A stretch of 64,000 nucleotides of DNA from CBDFMG01 sp965221205 [NCBI: bacterium]. Lineage in GTDB: Bacteria > SM23-31. The notes beneath the pieces were generated by a model. It searched no databases and was not told where the DNA came from. It saw nothing but the letters and a program-made list of their open reading frames with translations. This document shows positions 45,759 through 56,372 of this stretch, in pieces. A program made the translations under genes and the position numbers. The stretch spans positions 3,100,001 to 3,164,000 of the forward strand of contig OZ244870.1 of the NCBI GenBank assembly GCA_965221205.1, read 5' to 3'. How positions within the stretch are numbered: position 1 is the stretch's first letter; every line of letters begins with the position of its first letter.

Positions 45759-46008
45759 CCAAATTTTTTGTGAGCGTTTAAATGATAAGAATCTATAACA
45801 CTTTAACCACGAAGAATTGTTCCTGTATTATTTGAACTGATGTAATTTCGTATTTCTAAATGTACGAAAATTTTACTTAAACGCAATAAAAGGTGCAGCA
45901 AAACAAAAATATCGGGAACTATTTTTCGATCTAATCTGTGCCATTAATTGAAGGTAGCAGACATTTCATTAAGTTTTACCAAACTTTTTGTACTATGTGA
46001 AGGACGTT

Positions 46009-47178
46009 ATGCGGCATCACAAAACAATTTTACTTTTGGTTTTTGTTCTAACAGGATCGATTTTCTTTTCCTGCAGTGAGAATTCCGTTACAAACCCAAA
46101 CACTTCGCCTAAAGAAATCCGAGAATTTCCGGAACCGTTGACATTAACAGATCAGGAAATTACTGGGTTATCCAACGACTTCGGAATCAGTTTATTCAAA
46201 GAAATTAATAATTCTAAAGAATTAGACAATGTGTTTATTTCACCCCTCAGTGTGTCAGTGGCGCTGGCAATGACGTATAATGGCACTTCTGGGACAACAG
46301 AAGAAGCAATGAGATCAGTGCTGCAATAGTGCTGCAATATGGTGACTTGTCTTATGAGGAGATTAATGAATCATATCGCTATATTACAAATCTCTTGCTT
46401 ACACTTGACGATAAAATTGAATTCCAGATCGGAAACTCGATCTGGATTGATGATTTTTTCAGCGTTGAAAATACCTTTATTGACATCAACAGGACTTATT
46501 TTGATGCTGATGTTGTAACACTTGAACTCCAAAGTCCCAAAGCACTAAATACAATTAATAATTGGGTAAATACAAAAACAAATGAAAAAATCCCAAAAAT
46601 TCTTGATTCAATAAAAGGCAATATAGTAATGTTTCTCATCAGTACAATCTATTTCAAAGGGGATTGGACAAGCCAATTTAATGTGCAGGACACAGTTGAA
46701 GATGATTTTTTCTCCTTGATGGCAGTGTGAAATCTACATTGATGATGTCTCAGTAAAATGGCTTTGGTTATTACTCAGATGCTGATGTTCAAGTTGTCAA
46801 TTTACCGTACGGTGGACAGGCATTCAATATGATTATAGCACTCTGTGATGAAGAGGTCGATATCAATTCATTTATCTCCCAGATAGATTTCAATAAGCTG
46901 CAGGAGTGGATAGATGGATTCTATGAAGAGGATGTTAATCTTACGATGCAAAAATTCAAATTTGAATACGAAAAAACATTAAACGAAGTATTAAAAACGC
47001 TAGGTATGGAAGTCGCTTTTTCAGTTGGAGAGGCAAATTTTGCAACAATCAATCCTGATGAAGATTTATATATTGATGAAGCCAAACACAGCACTTTTAT
47101 CGATGTCAATGAAGAAGGAACCGAAGCTGCTGCTACAACATCAGTTGGTACAGGGACTACTTCTGCTCCACAGCTAAT
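46009..47178 (+). pseudogene. Serpin lipoprotein, three lesions and cut off in the reactive loop
   Basis: ATG at 46009 has GAAGGA upstream and a lipobox signal (SIFFSC). Serpin blocks: NVFISPLSVSVALAMTYNGT, FQIGNSIWID, INNWVNTKTNEKIPKIL, MFLISTIYFKGDWTSQF, and the inhibitory hinge EEGTEAAATTSV. Lesions: an 11-bp tandem duplication at 46317-46338 shifts the frame; another shift at about 46728; and TAA in MMSQ-stop-NGFGYYS near 46756. After the hinge the sequence changes abruptly to G+C-rich DNA near 47175, so the scissile bond region and the C-terminal DRPFLF strands are missing. The hinge Ala-rich segment shows the ancestor was an inhibitory serpin. Confidence 0.8.
46317..46338 (+). repeat. 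11-bp tandem duplication causing frameshift
   Basis: AGTGCTGCAAT is perfectly repeated head to tail. Deleting one copy joins MRSVLQ to YGDLSYEEINE in one serpin frame. Confidence 0.8.
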
Positions 47179-47229
47179 CGAGCGTCCTCCCGAACCCCGA
47201 TCCAGAACATATAGAGCCGCGAGGATGTG

Positions 47230-47499
47230 AGGTCCTCGGGAAACACCCGGGCCGCAGTCTCCGAACGCGTTTCGCATCGCCTTCCGGTCGGCAGAGGTAA
47301 CAGATCGGAGCGCGGCGGTGCTGTCCGGCTCGCACACAGCCTGACAACTGGCTGCTACTGCATCATCGGTGGTTGCGCGGCAAGCTTGTCCACATGCATC
47401 GTGTGAAGGCTCGGCAAGACACGGGACCTATCGCATCACGCACGAGGACAATCTCGTAAGGGTCCTTCAGGTCACGGAGGCCAATCTCAACGCCTAGCG
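47230..47499. other. Island left end, no confident gene
   Basis: G+C-rich. A minus-strand frame ending around 47190 (AALRSVTSADRKAMRNAFGD) and a short plus-strand frame ending near 47496 (YRITHEDNLVRVLQVTEANL) both look coding-like but match nothing I recognise; they may be fragments of other element genes. Confidence 0.35.
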
Positions 47500-50400
47500 T
47501 CAGAGCTTGGCCTTCGTGATGAGGGCGGTAATTTTTGCGGAGTCGATACTTCCATTTGCTTCGTCGCGCGTAATGATCAGTGTGCCGTTCTCGCCGCTCC
47601 CCTCTTCCAGCGGCATAATGCCATGAGCTCGGTACCATCCGAGTTTCTCTTCCCACCGGCGGCGGTAGCTGGGCACATGCAGCATCCCGCAGTGCTCCCA
47701 GTAGAACGTCGATCCTGACTCCATGTCCTCAATGGTGAAATCTGGGTATTTGGTGACGCCCTCGATGGTGAGCGGCTGTTCGTAGCCATACTCGACGCCA
47801 TTATTGGCAAGATGGTCCGCGATGATCACTTCAGACTTTGAGCGCACCATTTCGCCGCACGCGGTGCGGTGGATCAGATATTCCTCGAAGAAGAGGCCAT
47901 TGAACTCGACGAGTGACGGCGCGACGAAGAGGTTGGTCAAGCGCCGCGCGGTTTCGGAGCGGTCGTCCGAAGAGTACTTGTGCAACTCGGTGCGCTCGCC
48001 CTGGTGCAGGATGACGATGCGGTCCTTCTGGCGCGTGAGTGCGGTATAGAGCAGTTCGCGCGACAGCAGGCGGCAAGGGTTCGGCAACACGAGGATGACC
48101 GTACCGAACTGGCTGCCCTGGGATTTGTGAACCGTCAGCGCATAGGCGAGTTCGAGGATCGGATTGCCTTCTTCCACAAAGTCACGACTGGTGAAGTCGT
48201 ACTTGAAGCCTGGTTGTGAAGAGAACTCGACCTCGAGTTTGTGGCGCATGTCCGGTAGCCCTTTCTTACGGAAGAAGCCGACGGCCATGCCGATCTCACC
48301 GTTGGCGATATAGGCGTCATCCTTTTCCGGGTAAACCTTGCGACGGTCGGTGTTGACAAGGTTGATGACCTTGTCTCCGTAGACGATCTCCTCGGACCCC
48401 ATAGGCTTGGGATATTTGCGCTGCCATCCCTCCTTGCGGGCAGCATCGATCATCGCCTGTCGGAACTGCTTGTGAATGAGCCGATTCAGGTCGGGCACAC
48501 CATGGGCCGCCGACCGCACCGGCGAGAGGATCTGCCAGCTCTCGGACGTCTCTGCTGCACCGACCTTTTCGCCCTTGCGAGGGTTGAAGAAACGCATGTC
48601 GTTCCAAGCCACACCCCCGAGTGTGGCATCGAAGCCAGCGATGTCATCGGCTCCTGTAAGAGCCGGCGTTCCGTCGGCGCGTTTCAGTTCGTTCACCAAC
48701 ACCTCGACGAGGTGCGAGCGCATATCGTTAGCGGTCTGCCACTGCACGAAGCGAACGTGCCGGCTCTGGCCGGTGCGCACCACCTTGTCGAACACATCAT
48801 CCTCGCCCGCTGCAATGGGCGAGCCGCTGAACCATTCGGCGAACTGCAGATCCTCGCGATCCTCTCCCGCTTGTCGGTGGCGGATGGTCAATTCGGCATA
48901 GCCGGGGCCGACGCGCGGGAACTTCTCGGTGACGCCTTCCGGCGCGAGGTGCTTGACAATGTCCACGTCCACGAACGGCCGACCGGCGCCAATCGGCGGG
49001 AGCTGGCGGGGGTCACCGATGAGAATCAATCGGTGGACGCCCTTGAGCGCCTGGATCAGCGCCGCGAGCATCTCTTCGGTCAGCATCGAAGCCTCGTCAA
49101 TGATGACCGTGCGCGCGCCCGCCTCGGTTGGTTTGTCCGAAAGGCGATAGCGACCGGTCGCGCCGTCGTAGCGGTGCGGACTCAGGAACTGGGCAATCGT
49201 GTAGCCTTTGAGCTTGAGGCCCTTGGCGGACTGTTCCATGTACACGCGGGCCTTTCCGGTCGGCGCGAGCAGCAAGATTTCACCCGCTTTGACTTCCGGG
49301 TGCGAACAGAGCACCGACAACAAGGTGGTCTTGCCGGTTCCGGCGGGGCCGATCAGCACGGAGAGCCGCGCCTCTGCGAGCTCGGTCAGCGCGGCGGTCT
49401 TCTCTGCCCGGGCGCTTTCTTCCAGTTCATCGGGTTCTCCCGCCGACTGGGCGGGGAGGTGTGTGTCGAGGAGCTTCTGCCAGTCGGCCGCGACGGTCAT
49501 GCGCTTTCCCTTGAGTCGCTTGTCGACCATCTTCCGGATGGTCGCGCCCATCTGCGTCAGCCGGCCCAGCTGCAGAGCCGGAGCACTATCGGCCATGGCG
49601 ATCTCGCCGACCGCATCCCCGAAGTCGTCCTTGACGACGTTCATCAGGTCGGCGTCCACCTCGCAAGGCGGCTTGAGCGTGAGAGCGCGGATGTCGAGGA
49701 CAATCTGTTTCTGCGGAAGGAGCGTGTTGCCGGCGCCGGCAGCGCCTTCCAGAACCTTAACGGTGAATGAGCGGACCCGGCGCGCATCCGTTCCGGCGTC
49801 CAAGGCCGTCGGCGCAGGCAAGGGGTGCTTCTTTCGGATGACCTCGTCCGGGAAGATACCGCGGTCAACGGTCCAGACGCTGACAGGGTCGACGGTGAGG
49901 CGTGTCAGTTCGTAGAGCAGGTACGGGTTGGAGAGGATGGCCGCATCGCTCGTGTCGATTCCGGCCTTGGCACGCTCCTCCTGAACATAGAGTGCGGTCG
50001 CCTGCTCCGTGGTGATCTCGAAGCGGCTCACAAGTTTGAGCAGCGCACGTCGATCATCGGGTAGTCGGGACCACTTGCTGCACAGCGTCTTGCCGATGCT
50101 CTTGGCCAACGGTTCTGGCAGGTGCTTCTTGGGGTCGGCAAACATCTTGGCGACCAACGGCCAGGGATCGGCGTTGTCGCCAGCCTTCTCGGCGATGGCG
50201 CGGGCGACGAAAGTGCCGAACTCCAACCCGAACGCGGACAGTGCCGAGCCGAGCCCGGGGCACGGCCCTCGCGCCTTCCACAGTTCACCGAGCCGTGCGT
50301 CGATCCACGTCAGGCACTGATCCCACTGCCCTGGCAGGACGCCCTTGGCCTTGCGAAGCGATTCGGCGCACGCGAGTAATGATGCAATCGCACCGTCATG

Positions 50401-51251
50401 GCTAACCAATTGCGAGGCGTGGGAGAACTCAAGGAGTCGGTCGTCTGGTGAGAACGCGGCGATCTTTGCCGGGTCGAACTCTGGATCTTCATCCGCCTTC
50501 TTGATGGCCGCGTGATACGGCAGCAGGAAGCCGTCCTTGAAGCCGGGGCGGATGGAGTGCTGGACCATACGCTCCCACAACATCGAGCGCAGTTTGCCCT
50601 CAATATCCTTCGTCGTGTAGTCGTACTCCTGCACGGCGCCGACATGCAGCACCCGTCCGGCACCGACCAGGATGCGGCCACCGGCTGAGTCCTCCACGAA
50701 CGGCACCTGCTTGGCGTAGAAGAAGCAGAGGGAATACTTGGGCTTGAGGTGGCCAGCGAAACAGTCGAGCAGGGCCGTTTGGTTATCATGATTCTGAATC
50801 CACTGCGTCTTGAAGCCCAGGTCGGGTTCGCGTTCCATCTGGACATCAAGCTTGTGCTGCTCGCCCAGGACCTCCATCGTCTCGCGAAGCATCCAGGAGA
50901 ATGGCACCGCCGGCGCAGAGTAGCGTGGATGGCGAAGCGGCGTTGGCTTCAAGTGGCCGTAGCTCGTCCCAGGGCCGCGGTTGTGGAGATGATTGGCCAC
51001 GCGGCGGGTATACTCACAAAGGGCACCATGAAACCGACGCGCTCGGAGACACACGCCGGCCACTTTGCCTGCGGGAGATCCTTGATGCTCTTGCCCGCAA
51101 CGGATTCCTCTGCATCGTCGTTCCGGGTTTTTGCAATGCGCTTCAGCTTAAGGCAAGCACCATTCAATTGCGGCGCGGCACAGACGCGCCCGTCCCATCC
51201 GGTGTCGTGCCAAGGGACGCGGATGGAGATGTGTCTCAATGGGTAGTTCAT
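47500..51251 (-). pseudogene. Giant RecD-like SF1 helicase with nuclease-like C-terminus, one frameshift
   Basis: The longest single frame runs from 51063, but the N-terminus lies in another frame: from ATG at 51251 MNYPLRHISIRVPWHD leads to ERVGFMVPF, which joins EYTRRVANH if two bases (GT) near 51018 are dropped. Together about 1250 residues. An unfamiliar N-terminal domain of about 500 residues is followed by RecD/UvrD helicase motifs: Walker A GPAGTGKTTLL (near 49340), Walker B VIIDEASML, GDPRQLPPIGAGRPF, and UvrD_C_2-type ALTVHKSQGSQFGTV and YTALTRQKDRIVIL. The last 150 residues resemble a PD-(D/E)XK nuclease: RSKSEVIIADHL, YPDFTIED, YWEHCGML, with the Lys possibly displaced to EEKLGWY. 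Likely DNA unwinding and cleavage, plausibly phage defence (inference). If the single frameshift is an error, the gene is intact. Confidence 0.75.
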
Positions 51252-51300
51252 TAGGTTCCTCCTCTGATATGGCTACAAACTGGTAGCATCATCTTGCTTT

Positions 51301-51565
51301 CTAATCCGGTGCGCAGGGGCTTTCAAGCGCCGCCACGCGCCCACACACGCCAATATGGCGGCGGCCGTCCTGCAACGCGGCATCGTCGAGATGGGCATAG
51401 ATGGCGGTGGTGGACCGTCGCCGGTGTCCGAGCAGCCGCCTCACGGTGGTCAGCCCAACGCCGTTCATGACCCATTGGGACGCCCAAGTGTGGTGGCAGT
51501 CGTGGATGGGCAGCCCGTGCAATCCGGCGCAAAAGCTTCCATTTGCGGGAGGCTTTTGCATTTGA
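51301..51565 (-). pseudogene. Tyrosine recombinase (phage-type integrase), C-terminal fragment
   Basis: About 85 codons preserved: GLPIHDCHHTWASQWVMNGV, TTVRRLLGHRRRSTTAIYAHLDD. These match the catalytic C-terminus including the LLGH His and the Tyr nucleophile, but the HxxR arginine is replaced (HDCHH instead of HDLRH). The N-terminal core domain is absent beyond about 51560, where host-type DNA begins. Its stop at 51301 is 50 bp upstream of the helicase start on the same strand. Confidence 0.8.
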
Positions 51566-51595: not shown

Positions 51596-53137
51596 CTATT
51601 CTTCAATACTCCTTCGAGGGAGGAGCTCGTCTCGCATAGCAGTATGATAGAGAAAACTCGCCGTTATTACTGCATTCTTCATCAAATCTTCTTCAACCAG
51701 ATTATCGAAAACATCCATATTCGAGTGGTGAGTTTTCGTACTGTATTGTATCCTGTCCTGCAGGAACGAAAATCCGTTGAGTCCGGCCTGAACATAGGGA
51801 ACATGGTCGGAACCGCCGCGCGAAATTGAGTTATGGCCTGTTAGTGCTTTCATTCCGATATCCTGAAACGGCCTCATCCATTCTGTAAAAACCGGAATGA
51901 GTTCCGGGATCATTTGAATAGTAATTCCCCTGATACTCCCAGTCCCGGAGTCGTGCTGGTAATATGCCGATAGTTTATCGTAATCGGATTTTTGATTGGA
52001 GTATGTTCCAAAATGGTTAGCCACATATGCCCGGGAACCGAGAAGTCCCTGTTCTTCACCGCTCCAAAGTGCAATCCGAATAGTCCTCCTGGGCTGTACT
52101 TCGATGGCTTTTAATATTCTGACGGCTTCCAATGCGACAGCTGTCCCGGCACCGTTATCCGTTGCCCCTGTTCCCGAATGCCACGAATCGAAATGTCCAC
52201 CCACCATAACCAGCTCTTCAGCAAGATCAGTCCCCGGAATCTCACCGATTACATTATATTCCTGCAGATCATCGGTATAAAATGTGTTTTGTAGATTCAA
52301 TGAAAACTCGACTTCTGTACCCATTTCAACTAATCTGAAAAGCCTGTTGTAGTGCTCAGGCGTAAGTGTAATTTCGGGAATTGCTCTTGGGTTTTCAGAG
52401 CTGCGGGATATTCTTCTCGGACTCGATACGAATACTGTACCGTCATTTCCTCTCGTTCCCGGATCAAGCAGCGCAAGAGCTCCTTCCGACCGGGAAAAAT
52501 CCCGGATTTCACTATTAGACAACAAATCCTGTGGATCATCATCCCGTTCCGACGGATTATTCTGCTCTATTTGCGGGTTAAACCGCGACATTTCCTGTAA
52601 TTGTTCATCAGAGTACCGCCATGCATCAGCCATGAATCCGATTTCTACTTCACGCATTGGCACGGTTAACACAACAGCATCATGTAGTGAACCGCGATAT
52701 TTTTCCAAATCTTCTCGAGTTCGAACGGGTGCAATCTTAAGGTTACCATCCGCCCAACCATCGGTTCCAGACGTCCATGCCTTCGGATAACCGATGACCC
52801 GCATATACTGCGGTTTCGTCATATGGAGCGAGACAAAATCACTGCTCCACCCCATTCCGAATTCACCCCATGGTTCAAGATTCGTGTTTTTAAGTCCCCA
52901 GTCATCAAGTTGCTCAAGCGCCCACTGCTGTGCATTGCGCATCGAAGGAGAACCGCTCAGGCGGGGACCAAGCACATCGGTAATATGCTGTGCAAGTTCC
53001 ATAACCTGTGACCGGTTGAATCCTTCGTCACGAATTTTTGTTACAGCATCCCAGTCTATTCGTTCCTGAGCAATCAGTGTTGAAGGAAGCGAAAGGATCA
53101 ATACTGCACAGTACAAAAACACAGATTTTATGGTCAT
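51596..53137 (-). CDS. Secreted M28-family aminopeptidase
   Basis: 513 residues with signal peptide (PSTLIAQE). A PA-like insert occupies about residues 130-280. The zinc site is complete: GGHFDSW (about 312), GATDNGAGTAV with the bridging Asp, the Glu pair in LWSGEEQGLLGS (about 359), the HDSGTG Asp, and the last His in GGSDHVPY (about 442); HHSNMD closes the domain. It removes N-terminal residues from peptides in the periplasm or outside. It ends 30 bp from the foreign island and heads a tandem array of three M28 genes on the minus strand. Frame intact. Confidence 0.9.
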   Translation of the reverse strand: MTIKSVFLYCAVLILSLPSTLIAQERIDWDAVTKIRDEGFNRSQVMELAQHITDVLGPRLSGSPSMRNAQQWALEQLDDWGLKNTNLEPWGEFGMGWSSDFVSLHMTKPQYMRVIGYPKAWTSGTDGWADGNLKIAPVRTREDLEKYRGSLHDAVVLTVPMREVEIGFMADAWRYSDEQLQEMSRFNPQIEQNNPSERDDDPQDLLSNSEIRDFSRSEGALALLDPGTRGNDGTVFVSSPRRISRSSENPRAIPEITLTPEHYNRLFRLVEMGTEVEFSLNLQNTFYTDDLQEYNVIGEIPGTDLAEELVMVGGHFDSWHSGTGATDNGAGTAVALEAVRILKAIEVQPRRTIRIALWSGEEQGLLGSRAYVANHFGTYSNQKSDYDKLSAYYQHDSGTGSIRGITIQMIPELIPVFTEWMRPFQDIGMKALTGHNSISRGGSDHVPYVQAGLNGFSFLQDRIQYSTKTHHSNMDVFDNLVEEDLMKNAVITASFLYHTAMRDELLPRRSIEE

Positions 53138-53179
53138 GAAAATCCCTTCTTGTGGATCGATTATGAATAAAACCTTAGA

Positions 53180-54775
53180 CTATTGGTTTCTGCTTAGAAT
53201 TCTTTTAATCACATTTGCACCCCATTCGGTCTGTTTATCGGAACGGGGAAGTTTTTCATCACGCATTGCAGCATGATATACGAAACTTGCCATGATCACT
53301 GCTGCCTGCATTAGGTCTTCCGGCACGAGCCGGTCGTACACATCCATATTTGAATGATGGGTTCTGCTGCCATATTCTACTTCATCCTGAATGAACTGAA
53401 ATCCGGGAAGACCGACAGCATTGAACGAAAGATGGTCGGTACCGCCGGTAAATTCCGGCCACAAATGGCGCATACCGAGATCATGAAACGGTTTCATCCA
53501 CTCTGTAAAAATCTGACGGACAAGCTCATTTCCCTGTAAGTAAACACCGCGGAATCGTCCGGTTCCATTATCCATATTGAAATAAGCCGCAACCTTTTCC
53601 TGTTCATCGGTGAATTTACCACTGAGCGGATCGCCGAAATGGTTTTGCACATAGCCGATTGAACCAAGTAGTCCTTCTTCCTCCGCTCCCCAGAGTGCAG
53701 CACGAATAGTTCGCCGTGGTTTAATCCCAAGCGCTTTCAAAATTCGGACAGCTTCAATAACAATTGAACTGCCGGCACCATTATCAGTGGCACCGGTTCC
53801 TGCTGACGTTGCATCGAAATGACCACCGAGCATTACCAGTTCATCGGAAAGATCGGTACCAGGTATTTCCGCAACGATATTGTGATCGACCGTGTTATTG
53901 GTGAATAATGTCCGCACTTCAATTTCCATTTCAACAGGAATATCTTTTTCAAGTATTCTCATAACACGGTTATAGTGTTCGGTAGCCATAGTAATTGAAG
54001 GATAGGGAACAATTTCATCTTCTGACCGGACCAATTCGCCAAATACGTATACGGTTCCATCATCGCCCCCCTGCCAATCCGGGAATGCAAATGCCGCAGC
54101 TCCTTCGGACGCTAAGTATTCCATAATATCTTCAAAAGTAAGCCTCTCATTTTCTATATCAAAATCCAATTCAGGCATTTCCTCATCATCGTTGGGAACC
54201 TCAATAACCGTCTGTGACCGTTCGTCGAGGTCTTCTTGTGAAAAACGGACAGCATCAGGATCGAAATTCTGTGAAAGAGTAATCTCCGGTATGAGAAAAA
54301 TTACTGCACCTTTTACTTTTCCCCGGTAGCGGTGCAAATCGTTTTTACTCTTCAATTCCTGAAAATTCACATAAACAACCGGCCCTTTCACTTTCCCGTC
54401 CGTACCGGATGACCACGCATTCGGATAAGCAATTACCGGCATATATCGCGGTTTGATTATATGGACTGATGTGTATTGGTTCTCCCAACCGAGACCGAAT
54501 TCTCCCCACGGCTCTTTTTGAACATTTTTCAGCCCGTAGTCTTCCAACCGCTCCTGCGCCCAGTCCAATGCATCATAGTAGGATGGAGAATGAGCGAGAC
54601 GAGGACCAAAAACGTCGGTGAGATAGCTGGCTGTTTCCATCACCTCAGACCGTTCAAAACCTTCTTCCCTAATCTGTTGCACGACATCCCAATAAACAGG
54701 TTCCTGTGCTTTAACAGTTGTTGATATAAAGGATATGAGAATTATAGATAGAATACATGCACGCATGGTGTTCAT
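53180..54775 (-). CDS. Secreted M28-family aminopeptidase
   Basis: Start taken at MNTMRACIL, preceded by AGAGGTTGATC; the frame extends to 54829 without a ribosome site. Signal peptide ends TTVKAQE. The M28 zinc and catalytic residues are all present: GGHFDAT (about 316), GATDNGAGSS, the Glu pair in LWGAEEEGLLGS (about 363), NMDNGTG, GGTDHLSF and HHSNMD. A PA-like insert with an acidic stretch (NDDEEMPELDFDIENE) precedes the catalytic half. Very similar to the neighbours at 51596 and 54996, so a tandem duplication product. Frame intact, with a C-terminal extension (EWGANVIKRIL) not seen in the others. Confidence 0.9.
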   Translation of the reverse strand: MNTMRACILSIILISFISTTVKAQEPVYWDVVQQIREEGFERSEVMETASYLTDVFGPRLAHSPSYYDALDWAQERLEDYGLKNVQKEPWGEFGLGWENQYTSVHIIKPRYMPVIAYPNAWSSGTDGKVKGPVVYVNFQELKSKNDLHRYRGKVKGAVIFLIPEITLSQNFDPDAVRFSQEDLDERSQTVIEVPNDDEEMPELDFDIENERLTFEDIMEYLASEGAAAFAFPDWQGGDDGTVYVFGELVRSEDEIVPYPSITMATEHYNRVMRILEKDIPVEMEIEVRTLFTNNTVDHNIVAEIPGTDLSDELVMLGGHFDATSAGTGATDNGAGSSIVIEAVRILKALGIKPRRTIRAALWGAEEEGLLGSIGYVQNHFGDPLSGKFTDEQEKVAAYFNMDNGTGRFRGVYLQGNELVRQIFTEWMKPFHDLGMRHLWPEFTGGTDHLSFNAVGLPGFQFIQDEVEYGSRTHHSNMDVYDRLVPEDLMQAAVIMASFVYHAAMRDEKLPRSDKQTEWGANVIKRILSRNQ

Positions 54776-54995
54776 GATCAACCTCTTACGATTTATGATG
54801 AATGCAATAGATGGTTTCGTGTAATGCATTTGAAGATTGTTTCAATATAGGTATCCATATATGCTATTATCAAGCACTTTGTCGGCTTGATGCTTAAAAT
54901 CATGGTTAAGCAAAACGTGCCAATAATAATAATCAGATATTGATAATAATTATTTTTTATTAGGATATTTAATATCTGTTTTTTGGTTCAGGAAG

Positions 54996-56372
54996 CTATT
55001 TTTTCGGAAGTTTTTCATCCCGCATAGATGCATGGCACACAAAACTTGCCGTCACAATCGATGCCTGCATGAGATCTTCTGCTGAAAGCCGGTCAAAGAC
55101 ATCTATATTTGAGTGGTGCGTTCTTGAATCGTATTCCAATGGATCCTGAATAAATTGGAATCCGGAAAGTCCAATTTCATCAAATGCGAGATGGTCGGTG
55201 CAGCCTGTATAACCGGGAGCAAGATGGGTCATGTTTAAATCGTGAAACGGTTTCATCAATTCATCAAAAATCGGCCTAACCAAGAGATTATTTTGAAGAT
55301 AGATACCACGGATTTTTTCCGTGCCGTTGTCATAATTCAAATAGACAGAAACGTTTTCATGGTCGGATTTTAACTCCATGGTATTTCTGTTCCCAAAGTG
55401 CTTGGCTGCATATCTGCGTGATCCCCACACACCTAATTCTTCTCCCCTCCATAACACTGCACGGATCGTTCTGCAGGATTGCACACCAATCTCTTTTAAT
55501 ATCCTGACCGCGCTTCGATAACCACCGAGCTTCCTGCACCATTATCAGTCGCACCTGTTCCGACAGATGTCGCATCGAAATGACCGCCGAGAATTACCAA
55601 CTCATCTGCAAAGTCAGTGCCGGGAATTTCTACAACCACGTTAAAGTCTTCAAGATTTTCATCATAAAACGTCGATTTAATTTTAATTTCCATCTCAACG
55701 GGGATGTCCTTTTGAAGAATTCGCACAATTCTATTATAGTGCTCTGCAGCGATTGTCACCATGGATAGTGGTTTTGCGCTGTCACGTTTGCGGAGAGGCC
55801 AATCGTAGACATAAACCGTTCCATCATCACCATCATTGCCAGGCGACACAAAAACTGCTGCACCTTCTTCTCTTAGAAGCTGCATGATACGTGTCCGGGA
55901 TAATGTTTGAGATTTTGTATCAGCATTGAAGTATTCATTAGTATCAAATCCACCTCTCGGTGCATCAATCAATGTTTTCGCAAGCTCATCGAGATCTGCA
56001 TTTGAACACCGCTCGGGTTCCGATAATCTTCGAGTTCTGTTTCGGATTTCATTGCGCCTATATCAATAAGCACAACAGGGGCTCTAATTTTTCCATCTGT
56101 TCCCGATGTCCATGGATTAGGATAGGCAATCACCGGCATATACCTAGGCTCGATCATATGAACCGACGTATAAATGTTTTCCCAGCCGAGACCGAATTCA
56201 TCCCATGTTTCAAAATGGACATTTTCAAGACCGAACTCCTCTGAGACCGCTCGAAACCTTCTTCTCGGATTTGCTGTACTACATCCCAATAAACCTTTTC
56301 CTGTGCAACTGCATAATCACTTATTAAGGAAAGAGAGCAAAACAGTGCCATAATATATCGAATATATTTCAT
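54996..56372 (-). pseudogene. M28-family aminopeptidase, third tandem copy, broken
   Basis: From MKYIRYIM (56372) a signal peptide and VYWDVVQQIREEGFERS match the copy at 53180, then about 45 codons are missing and the frame changes before FGLENVHFETWDEFGLGW. Further breaks: after ELEDYRN near 56015, and one base lost near 55515 (IEARSGY instead of IEAVRILK). The zinc motifs GGHFDATS, GATDNGAGSS, LWRGEELG and GCTDHLAF persist, so decay is recent. The usual Gly before TDH is Cys. Confidence 0.85.

What the first reader, a model, noticed from the sequence alone, without database searches (positions are those of the whole stretch)
47500..51251. RecD-like helicase with nuclease-like tail: candidate defence gene
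About 1250 residues: an N-terminal domain with spaced Cys and an RHISIRVPWHD opening that I do not recognise, complete SF1 helicase motifs, and a C-terminal block resembling a PD-(D/E)XK nuclease. It sits alone beside an integrase remnant in a small foreign island, a common setting for single-gene anti-phage cargo. The closeness of all domains in one chain is unusual for housekeeping RecD.
Basis: partly seen in the sequence, partly recalled or inferred. Interest (0 to 1): 0.75.

Follow-up and report, generated by a model that had tools for sequence, protein, structure and literature searches.

The report
Broken candidate phage-defence helicase-nuclease gene
A foreign piece of DNA carries a frameshifted copy of a large helicase-nuclease gene that is already catalogued as a candidate anti-phage gene and that, in other bacteria, often lies inside or beside known virus-defence operons.

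Summary
The gene is real. Window 47500-51251 (- strand) encodes a RecD2-type SF1 helicase with an N-terminal domain that Pfam does not name and a C-terminal nuclease-like domain. Its frame is broken near 51.02 kb: the RHISIRVPWHD start lies in one frame, the following 1187-codon ORF in another. That ORF matches PADLOC's candidate family PDC-S68 nearly end to end (1496 bits), so the kind is known; I found no experimental paper on it. Relatives at 70-88% identity lie in bins of many phyla, often inside or beside type I or III R-M, BREX, DISARM-like, TmtA or DRT1a genes: 127 neighbour proteins hit 341 PADLOC models, 145 control proteins 6. The predicted C-terminus has a PD-(D/E)XK/Vsr-like fold (best Z 9.9) with an invariant PD...EH instead of the classical ExK. 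The N-terminus keeps invariant H7, C24, C33 and C67; weak structural matches, all EVE-type, hint at a modified-base reader, but profile comparison does not support it. Integrases are not regular neighbours. In the window the island abuts a truncated serpin and a truncated recombinase gene, so a chimeric assembly is possible. Verdict: new, broken member of a known candidate defence family.

The parts
47500..51251 (-). PDC-S68-type gene, frameshifted; ATG 51251, stop 47500-47502
50949..51251 (-). ORF with the N-terminal part in its original frame (MNYPLRHISIRVPWHD...), holding the conserved H7, R11, W14, D16, C24, N30, C33, C67
   Evidence: no Pfam family at E<=1
51005..51035 (-). approximate place of the frame break (intact copies exist in relatives)
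   Evidence: comparison
47500..51063 (-). 1187-aa ORF: rest of the N-terminal domain, RecD2-like helicase, nuclease-like domain
50347..51251 (-). N-terminal domain (matches residues 1-300 of relative L016); weak EVE/PUA-like structural matches
   Evidence: not supported by profiles
49495..50064 (-). RecD2-like helical/winged-helix region before the motor (L016 395-584)
   Evidence: 3gp8 Z 12.4, 3.7 A, 155 aligned (model of L016)
48001..49434 (-). SF1 helicase core: GPAGTGKT, DEAS, GDPRQLPPIG, VHKSQGS, YTALTR
47503..47844 (-). Vsr/PD-(D/E)XK-like nuclease domain: SKSE, YE, PDFT, WEHCGM, W..K
   Evidence: model of L016; window included in the alignment
51301..51561 (-). C-terminal fragment of a tyrosine recombinase, cut at the island edge; 49 bp upstream of the gene, same strand
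   Evidence: XerC profile positions 239-283 of 295
45988..47175 (+). serpin gene in three ORFs, without its last ~36 profile positions at the island edge
   Evidence: last piece ends at profile position 334 of 370
47175..51560 (.). high-GC foreign island (edges approximate)

Best explanation
This is a recently broken (or mis-read or mis-assembled) copy of PDC-S68, a horizontally spread, single-chain helicase-nuclease that most likely attacks invading DNA. Shown by sequence or model: an N-terminal domain with an invariant H7/C24/C33/C67 set; a RecD2-type SF1 motor with its motifs; and a C-terminal Vsr-like PD-(D/E)XK fold. Inferred: the N-terminal domain recognises a feature of foreign or replicating DNA; the motor loads on single-stranded DNA and moves 5'->3' as RecD2 does (direction recalled); the C-terminal nuclease cuts the displaced strand or a nearby junction. 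In relatives the gene often sits inside or beside other defence operons, as an extra layer or as their accessory nuclease. In the window the frame break after about 78 residues should destroy the N-terminal domain, so this copy is probably inactive unless the break is a sequencing error.
For: PADLOC PDLC05065 PDC-S68: 1496.5 bits over 16-1184 of the ORF and 78-1217 of 1221 positions. Neighbours: 127 proteins from 24 loci hit 341 PADLOC models at E<=1e-10; 145 control proteins from 18 other stretches of the same genomes hit 6. 9 of 9 chosen large neighbours match Drt1a, TmtA, DrmD, REase_I, MTase_I, REase_III or BrxC. 27 of 31 genomes reached through relatives hold one full-length copy in one piece, 4 hold it in pieces or cut by a contig end. 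4 of 147 genomes of the Tahibacter family have it, one of them cut at its start. 95-96% DNA identity among an Acidobacteria bin, a Nitrospinae bin and an IMG/VR contig. Fold: I-Bth0305I Z 9.9, Bax1 8.7, Vsr 8.3. Constraint: dN/dS 0.113 against L016; 98 of 98 invariant columns kept.
Against: I found no test of activity in the library. The defence link is guilt by association, and the 341-to-6 figure counts models, of which one large helicase can hit dozens. The classical ExK lysine is absent in 35 of 35, so catalysis is assumed. The phylum labels on the tree are partly clustered (14 changes, shuffled mean 18.5), so not all spread is recent transfer. In the window no second defence gene was recognised beside it, and both island edges cut genes, as in a chimeric contig.
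Confidence: 0.72

Rival explanations
1. Accessory subunit: PDC-S68 does not defend alone but serves as a DNA-processing partner of the system in which it sits (type I R-M, DRT1a, TmtA), clearing or signalling cut or stalled DNA.
For: Co-directional ORF within 100 bp in 23 of 36 relatives (no control for this number); DRT1a 16 bp upstream or overlapping in L002, L015 and L016; in L005 the gene overlaps a 742-aa gene of the type I methylase cluster on one side and a 488-aa gene on the other.
Against: Partners change within one clade of 77-88% identity (L016 DRT1a, L023 type I REase, L004 no co-directional ORF within 100 bp).
Confidence: 0.3
2. Housekeeping or repair RecD2 paralogue.
For: RecD2 is the closest solved helicase (3e1s E 6.4e-42; 3gp8 Z 12.4).
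Against: Below the RecD2 and RecD cut-offs; 26 of 31 genomes have further, helicase-part matches, some very weak, which I take for RecD2 and other helicases; sporadic; defence-rich neighbours.
Confidence: 0.04
3. The island in this window is a chimeric contig join or contaminant, so the gene does not belong to this host at all.
For: The serpin loses its end at one edge and the recombinase its first ~235 residues at the other; only about 36 bp lie between the right edge and the next gene, no room for the lost serpin end; no direct repeat of 14 nt or more pairs the two edges; sharp GC step; other split genes in the contig.
Against: A foreign island with a recombinase remnant is also what an ordinary insertion with deletion leaves. 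No reads and no own genome were available.
Confidence: 0.3

Closest known systems
PADLOC PDC-S68 (PDLC05065; the PDC series is from Payne et al. 2024, which I know only as cited and summarised in passages of PMC12988326)
   Same: Near full-length profile match, same size; defence-operon context in relatives.
   Different: Window copy is frameshifted and has no recognised second defence gene beside it.
RecD2 (Deinococcus RecD2, 3gp8/3e1s)
   Same: SF1 core and the helical/winged-helix region before it.
   Different: Extra N-terminal ~300-residue domain and C-terminal nuclease-like domain; far below the equivalog cut-off.
Vsr / I-Bth0305I / Bax1 nuclease domains
   Same: Predicted fold of the last ~113 residues.
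   Different: Invariant SKSE...YE...PD...EH set; no shown activity; fused to a helicase (Bax1 is solved with the separate helicase XPB).
EVE/UPF0310 (PUA-like) readers
   Same: The only fold type among the listed rows that span residues 1-298 (1wmm, 2hd9, 2ar1, 2p5d).
   Different: Z only 5.5-5.7; profile comparison negative; the invariant Cys/His set is not part of EVE (recalled).
PADLOC PDC-S69 (289 aa) and ~260-310-aa proteins of Bacillota and Treponema bins that end in a similar domain
   Same: C-terminal nuclease-like domain (PDC-S69 E 1.8e-5; YWEHCGM ends).
   Different: Too short to hold the helicase.

Membership tests
PDC-S68 | Near full-length match to the PADLOC model | tested here: met
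   1496.5 bits, positions 78-1217 of 1221; the missing first 77 positions correspond to the other frame
PDC-S68 | Intact gene | tested here: not met
   Frame break after ~78 residues; member by descent, not a working copy as read
PDC-S68 | Found with other defence genes | tested here: met
   Met for relatives as a group; not seen in the window itself
RecD2 equivalog | TIGR01448 cut-off 500 bits | tested here: not met
   192.5 bits
RecD (RecBCD) | TIGR01447 cut-off 310.15 bits | tested here: not met
   147.8 bits
TraA relaxase-helicase | TIGR02768 cut-off 590.45 bits | tested here: not met
   72.7 bits
PD-(D/E)XK superfamily | Core fold | tested here: met
   pLDDT 84.9; 3r3p Z 9.9, 2.5 A, 90 aligned; 1cw0 Z 8.3; Foldseek best E 6.5e-4, Bax1
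PD-(D/E)XK superfamily | Classical PD...(D/E)XK motif | tested here: not met
   P1166-D1167 and E1182-H1183 in 35 of 35, followed by C (29) or L (6), never K
Vsr-like branch | Vsr catalytic residues in register | tested here: inconclusive
   Fold matches only; residue pairing not given by the tool
EVE / PUA-like reader | Fold | tested here: inconclusive
   Z 5.5-5.7 for four EVE-type entries; 2ar1 is EVE by profile (E 4.7e-55), 2p5d kin of 1wmm, 1wmm only E 0.81 to the EVE profile; Foldseek alone nothing at E<=0.001
EVE / PUA-like reader | Sequence-profile similarity to EVE | tested here: not met
   hhalign probability 0.7% and 0.9%; no EVE among the Pfam rows listed
Anti-phage function | Protection in a plating assay | not testable with these tools
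   none

The most novel reading that the evidence does not exclude
PDC-S68 is a single-chain modification- or structure-dependent restriction motor: an EVE-like reader with a built-in Cys/His metal site finds modified or displaced phage DNA, a RecD2-type motor drives along it, and a Vsr-like nuclease with a PD...EH active site cuts. It is slotted as an exchangeable module into type I R-M, TmtA and DRT1a operons; with DRT1a it forms an undescribed two-gene system in which an SF1 helicase akin to phage Dda, a reported part of DRT1's activating network, is supplied in cis.
Probability: 0.2. Interest if true: 0.7.

Novelty: new member of a known kind. Interest (0 to 1): 0.36.

Why it matters
PDC-S68 is an untested candidate of the defence catalogue as far as I could find. 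The alignment names residues to mutate (H7, C24, C33, C67; Walker A; D1167, E1182, H1183) and intact relatives from environmental strains to test. The recurring DRT1a-PDC-S68 gene pair and the placement in type I R-M loci ask whether it is an independent defence or a shared accessory part.

Tried and rejected
Housekeeping RecD2/RecD and TraA relaxase: rejected by curated cut-offs and distribution. Integrase cargo as a rule: not supported; Phage_integrase is in at most one of 127 neighbours and in 2 of 145 control proteins. All 26 genomes searched hold integrases; that list was cut, and among its rows only G005, G016 and G018 show one on the PDC-S68 contig within about 15 kb (nearest 4 kb, G018). 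EVE homology by profiles: negative (an unrelated pair gave 0.1%). PDB sequence search with N-terminal and C-terminal profiles: nothing significant. Foldseek with the N-terminal model: nothing in PDB at E<=0.001; in BFVD one RecD2-like Megavirus protein at E 2.4e-4. ASCH as a second PUA-type profile: only 1 of 34 genomes had it, so none was built. DNA similarity of the island's edges to relatives' flanks: none reported; small edge ORFs: only weak hits. Papers: no hit for PDC-S68 or for MJ1519, a recalled locus name; the listings showed me no experimental study of this protein. Passages of PMC7641849 and PMC12839542 have no 'RecD' or 'Vsr'. Codon ratios for the window did not print and were done.

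Rows dropped before counts: from the 35-row alignment, L012, L024, L025, L027, L054 and L058 (cut or broken), L010, L047 and L050 (near-copies of L007 or of each other), L048 (same contig as L061), L031-L046 apart from L033 (nuclease-domain-only or fragments) and L062-L067 (helicase part only). Neighbour set: 136 ORFs cut by hand to 127 to stay within 50000 residues (nine mostly outer ORFs left out, some of them of defence clusters). Control set: 149 cut to 145 (one 3999-aa ORF, three ORFs of L087), so controls come from 18 of the 20 fetched stretches; some of these are short contigs.

Full report
Observation. On the - strand, 47500-51063 is open for 1187 codons and 50949-51251 holds the start in another frame. 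Intact relatives begin like M-YPLRHISIRVPWHDTGWDGRVC and read on without a break, so the window has one gene broken after about 78 residues. The start at 51251 follows a purine-rich, Shine-Dalgarno-like stretch. The rest is well kept: 98 of 98 columns invariant in 35 relatives (from residue 82 on) and 76 of 77 nearly invariant ones. dN/dS is 0.113 against the nearest relative L016 and 0.101-0.111 against three others, compared with 0.074-0.079 between L016 and those three. The break is therefore recent or a sequencing error; I cannot tell which. Other genes of the contig are split too: the serpin (three ORFs) and, by its look, an M28-type peptidase (54996-55972).

Setting. GC is 57-66% over 47.25-51.5 kb and 27-50% in the rest of 43-56 kb. 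On the left the serpin stops at profile position 334 of 370; about 36 bp between the right edge and the next gene leave no room for its end. On the right only the last 86 codons of a tyrosine recombinase remain, 49 bp upstream of the gene. No tRNA was found in the window and no direct repeat of 14 nt or more pairs the edges. This is an insertion with deletion or a chimeric join; no own genome is held.

What the protein is. Pfam gives AAA_30/AAA_19 and UvrD_C_2. NCBIfam ranks RecD2 first but far below the equivalog cut-off (192.5 of 500 bits). PADLOC gives PDC-S68 at 1496.5 bits, its next model 474. Passages of PMC12988326 say that such candidates come from a guilt-by-embedding screen (its reference is Payne et al. 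2024, not seen by me) and that validation is pending for most of those in its core set. No paper in the library names PDC-S68.

Relatives. 46 loci in genome contigs (about 14 of them match only the nuclease end), and 2 and then 18 in IMG/VR (two contigs appear twice and six loci match only the helicase part). Whether those IMG/VR contigs are true viruses was not tested. Full-length plasmid hits include H1-H5, and two 'Bacteriophage sp.' records from human faeces match over 98% of the query at about 32% identity. Best-segment identity to the window is 70-87% in bins labelled Planctomycetota, Proteobacteria, Nitrospirae, Acidobacteria, Chloroflexi, Chlorobi and Actinomycetota. L007, L010 and L047 share 95-96% DNA identity with short flanks, although labelled Acidobacteria, Nitrospinae and IMG/VR. 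On a FastTree tree the window joins L016 (Acidobacteriia bin, support 92). Planctomycetota (3 rows) and Acidobacteriota (2 rows) are scattered, but the labels as a whole are partly clustered: 14 changes for 12 phyla, 11 the least possible, shuffled mean 18.5. Bins can hold foreign contigs, but the isolates Tahibacter aquaticus, Thiocystis minor and Oribacterium sinus carry it too. The family is sporadic: 4 of 147 genomes in the Tahibacter family, that genome included and one copy cut at its start. Broken copies recur: G025 (in two pieces, one TAA) and G027 (three pieces) among 31 genomes, and plasmid copies in two pieces in H2 and H3 (for H3 two annotated genes).

Anatomy. In 35 relatives H7, R11, W14, D16, C24, P27, N30, C33 and C67 are invariant at the N-terminus, H86 in 34. 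The model of residues 1-605 of L016 is confident (pLDDT 91.8). Its 395-584 part matches RecD2 (3gp8, Z 12.4, 3.7 A, 155 aligned). Of the 50 listed rows only four start before residue 300, all spanning about 1-298, and all four are EVE-type or UPF0310 proteins (1wmm, 2hd9, 2ar1, 2p5d; Z 5.5-5.7). 2ar1 matches an EVE profile at E 4.7e-55, 1wmm only at 0.81, and 2p5d is kin of 1wmm. Z at this level may mean only a common arrangement. Foldseek alone found nothing at E<=0.001, and hhalign against 16 EVE sequences gave 0.7-0.9% probability. I treat the reader domain as a lead only. Three Cys plus a His suggest a metal site (inference).

The C-terminal 162 residues of L016 fold with pLDDT 84.9. The best matches include the homing nuclease I-Bth0305I (Z 9.9, 2.5 A), Bax1 (8.7) and Vsr (8.3); a mitoribosomal protein (8.8) and a putative endonuclease (8.6) lie between. 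Foldseek's best is Bax1 at E 6.5e-4. S1134, E1137, Y1153-E1154, P1166-D1167 and E1182-H1183 are invariant in 35 of 35, K1199 in 34; the classical ExK is absent. A similar domain ends separate ~260-310-aa proteins in Bacillota and Treponema bins.

Context test. At E<=1e-10 the neighbours hit 341 PADLOC models and the controls 6. The tool counts models, not proteins, and one large helicase can hit dozens, so this is not a per-gene rate. Nine large neighbours, chosen for size and recurrence, all matched defence models: Drt1a (L002), TmtA (L011, L059), type I restriction (L023, L051), type I methylase (L051), type III restriction (L014), BrxC (L026), DrmD-like (L011). By BLAST clusters the DRT1a gene recurs in 3 loci (L002, L015, L016), the TmtA cluster in 6, and the type I R-M clusters in 8 of the 40 loci examined; members not scanned themselves are named by similarity. 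In L002, L015 and L016 the DRT1a gene ends 16 bp upstream of the PDC-S68 start or overlaps it. A co-directional ORF within 100 bp is present in 23 of 36 loci, near-copies included; I have no control for that number.

A DRT1 paper (PMC13275509, passages seen) reports that escape mutants identify the T4 helicase Dda as part of DRT1's activating network. Dda is among the solved helicases that match this family's motor (3upu, E 2.5e-13). That is a coincidence worth testing, not evidence.

Mechanism. Shown: family match, motor motifs, predicted nuclease fold, conserved N-terminal set, defence context of relatives. Inferred: the N-terminal domain selects target DNA, the motor tracks 5'->3' as RecD2 does (direction recalled), and the nuclease cuts. 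Whether it acts alone or as an accessory is open. The window copy is probably inactive.

Verdict. Known in kind (a candidate defence family without a test that I could find), moderately interesting for its shared nuclease domain and its repeated partnership with DRT1a and type I R-M genes.

Noticed in passing
L049:1-13277 (Aminicenantes contig, G024:C7): The two halves of PDC-S68 lie at opposite ends of a 13,277-bp contig (11-2107 and 11710-13269, both -), and the 18 leftover end bases equal the 6 missing codons: the contig looks like a circle (small plasmid or excised element) or a tandem repeat. It also carries 441-, 1350-, 439- and 391-aa ORFs that look like ATPase, NTPase/TPR and TPR proteins (by eye).
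   Followed up: partly
L002:4217-11750, L015:6028-13561, L016:5955-13540: DRT1a (reverse transcriptase-nitrilase) directly followed by PDC-S68 in beta- and gammaproteobacterial and acidobacterial bins; L002 and L015 are 84% identical over 7.6 kb.
   Followed up: partly
L034-L046 (e.g. L036:9575-10348, L044:1921-2697): Separate ~260-310-aa proteins that end in a similar YWEHCGM nuclease-like domain, in Bacillota and Treponema bins.
   Followed up: partly
control genomes: Methanocaldococcus jannaschii rings for PDC-S68 at E<=1e-100, so an archaeal member probably exists.
   Followed up: no
L113:8016-11410 (Sphingomonas changnyeongensis plasmid pC33): PDC-S68 annotated as two genes overlapping by 4 bp: split gene or frameshift.
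   Followed up: no
L111:7728-12726 (Vibrio fluvialis IncC plasmid record): A 34% identical PDC-S68 relative lies about 0.7 kb from a gene annotated as a Qnr-family pentapeptide repeat protein.
   Followed up: no
window 45988-47230: Serpin gene in three frames; one break coincides with an 11-bp tandem duplication near 46320.
   Followed up: partly
window 51596-55972: A run of M28-type peptidase genes (51596-53137 by Pfam; 53180-54829 and 54996-55972 look similar by eye), the last split into two ORFs.
   Followed up: no
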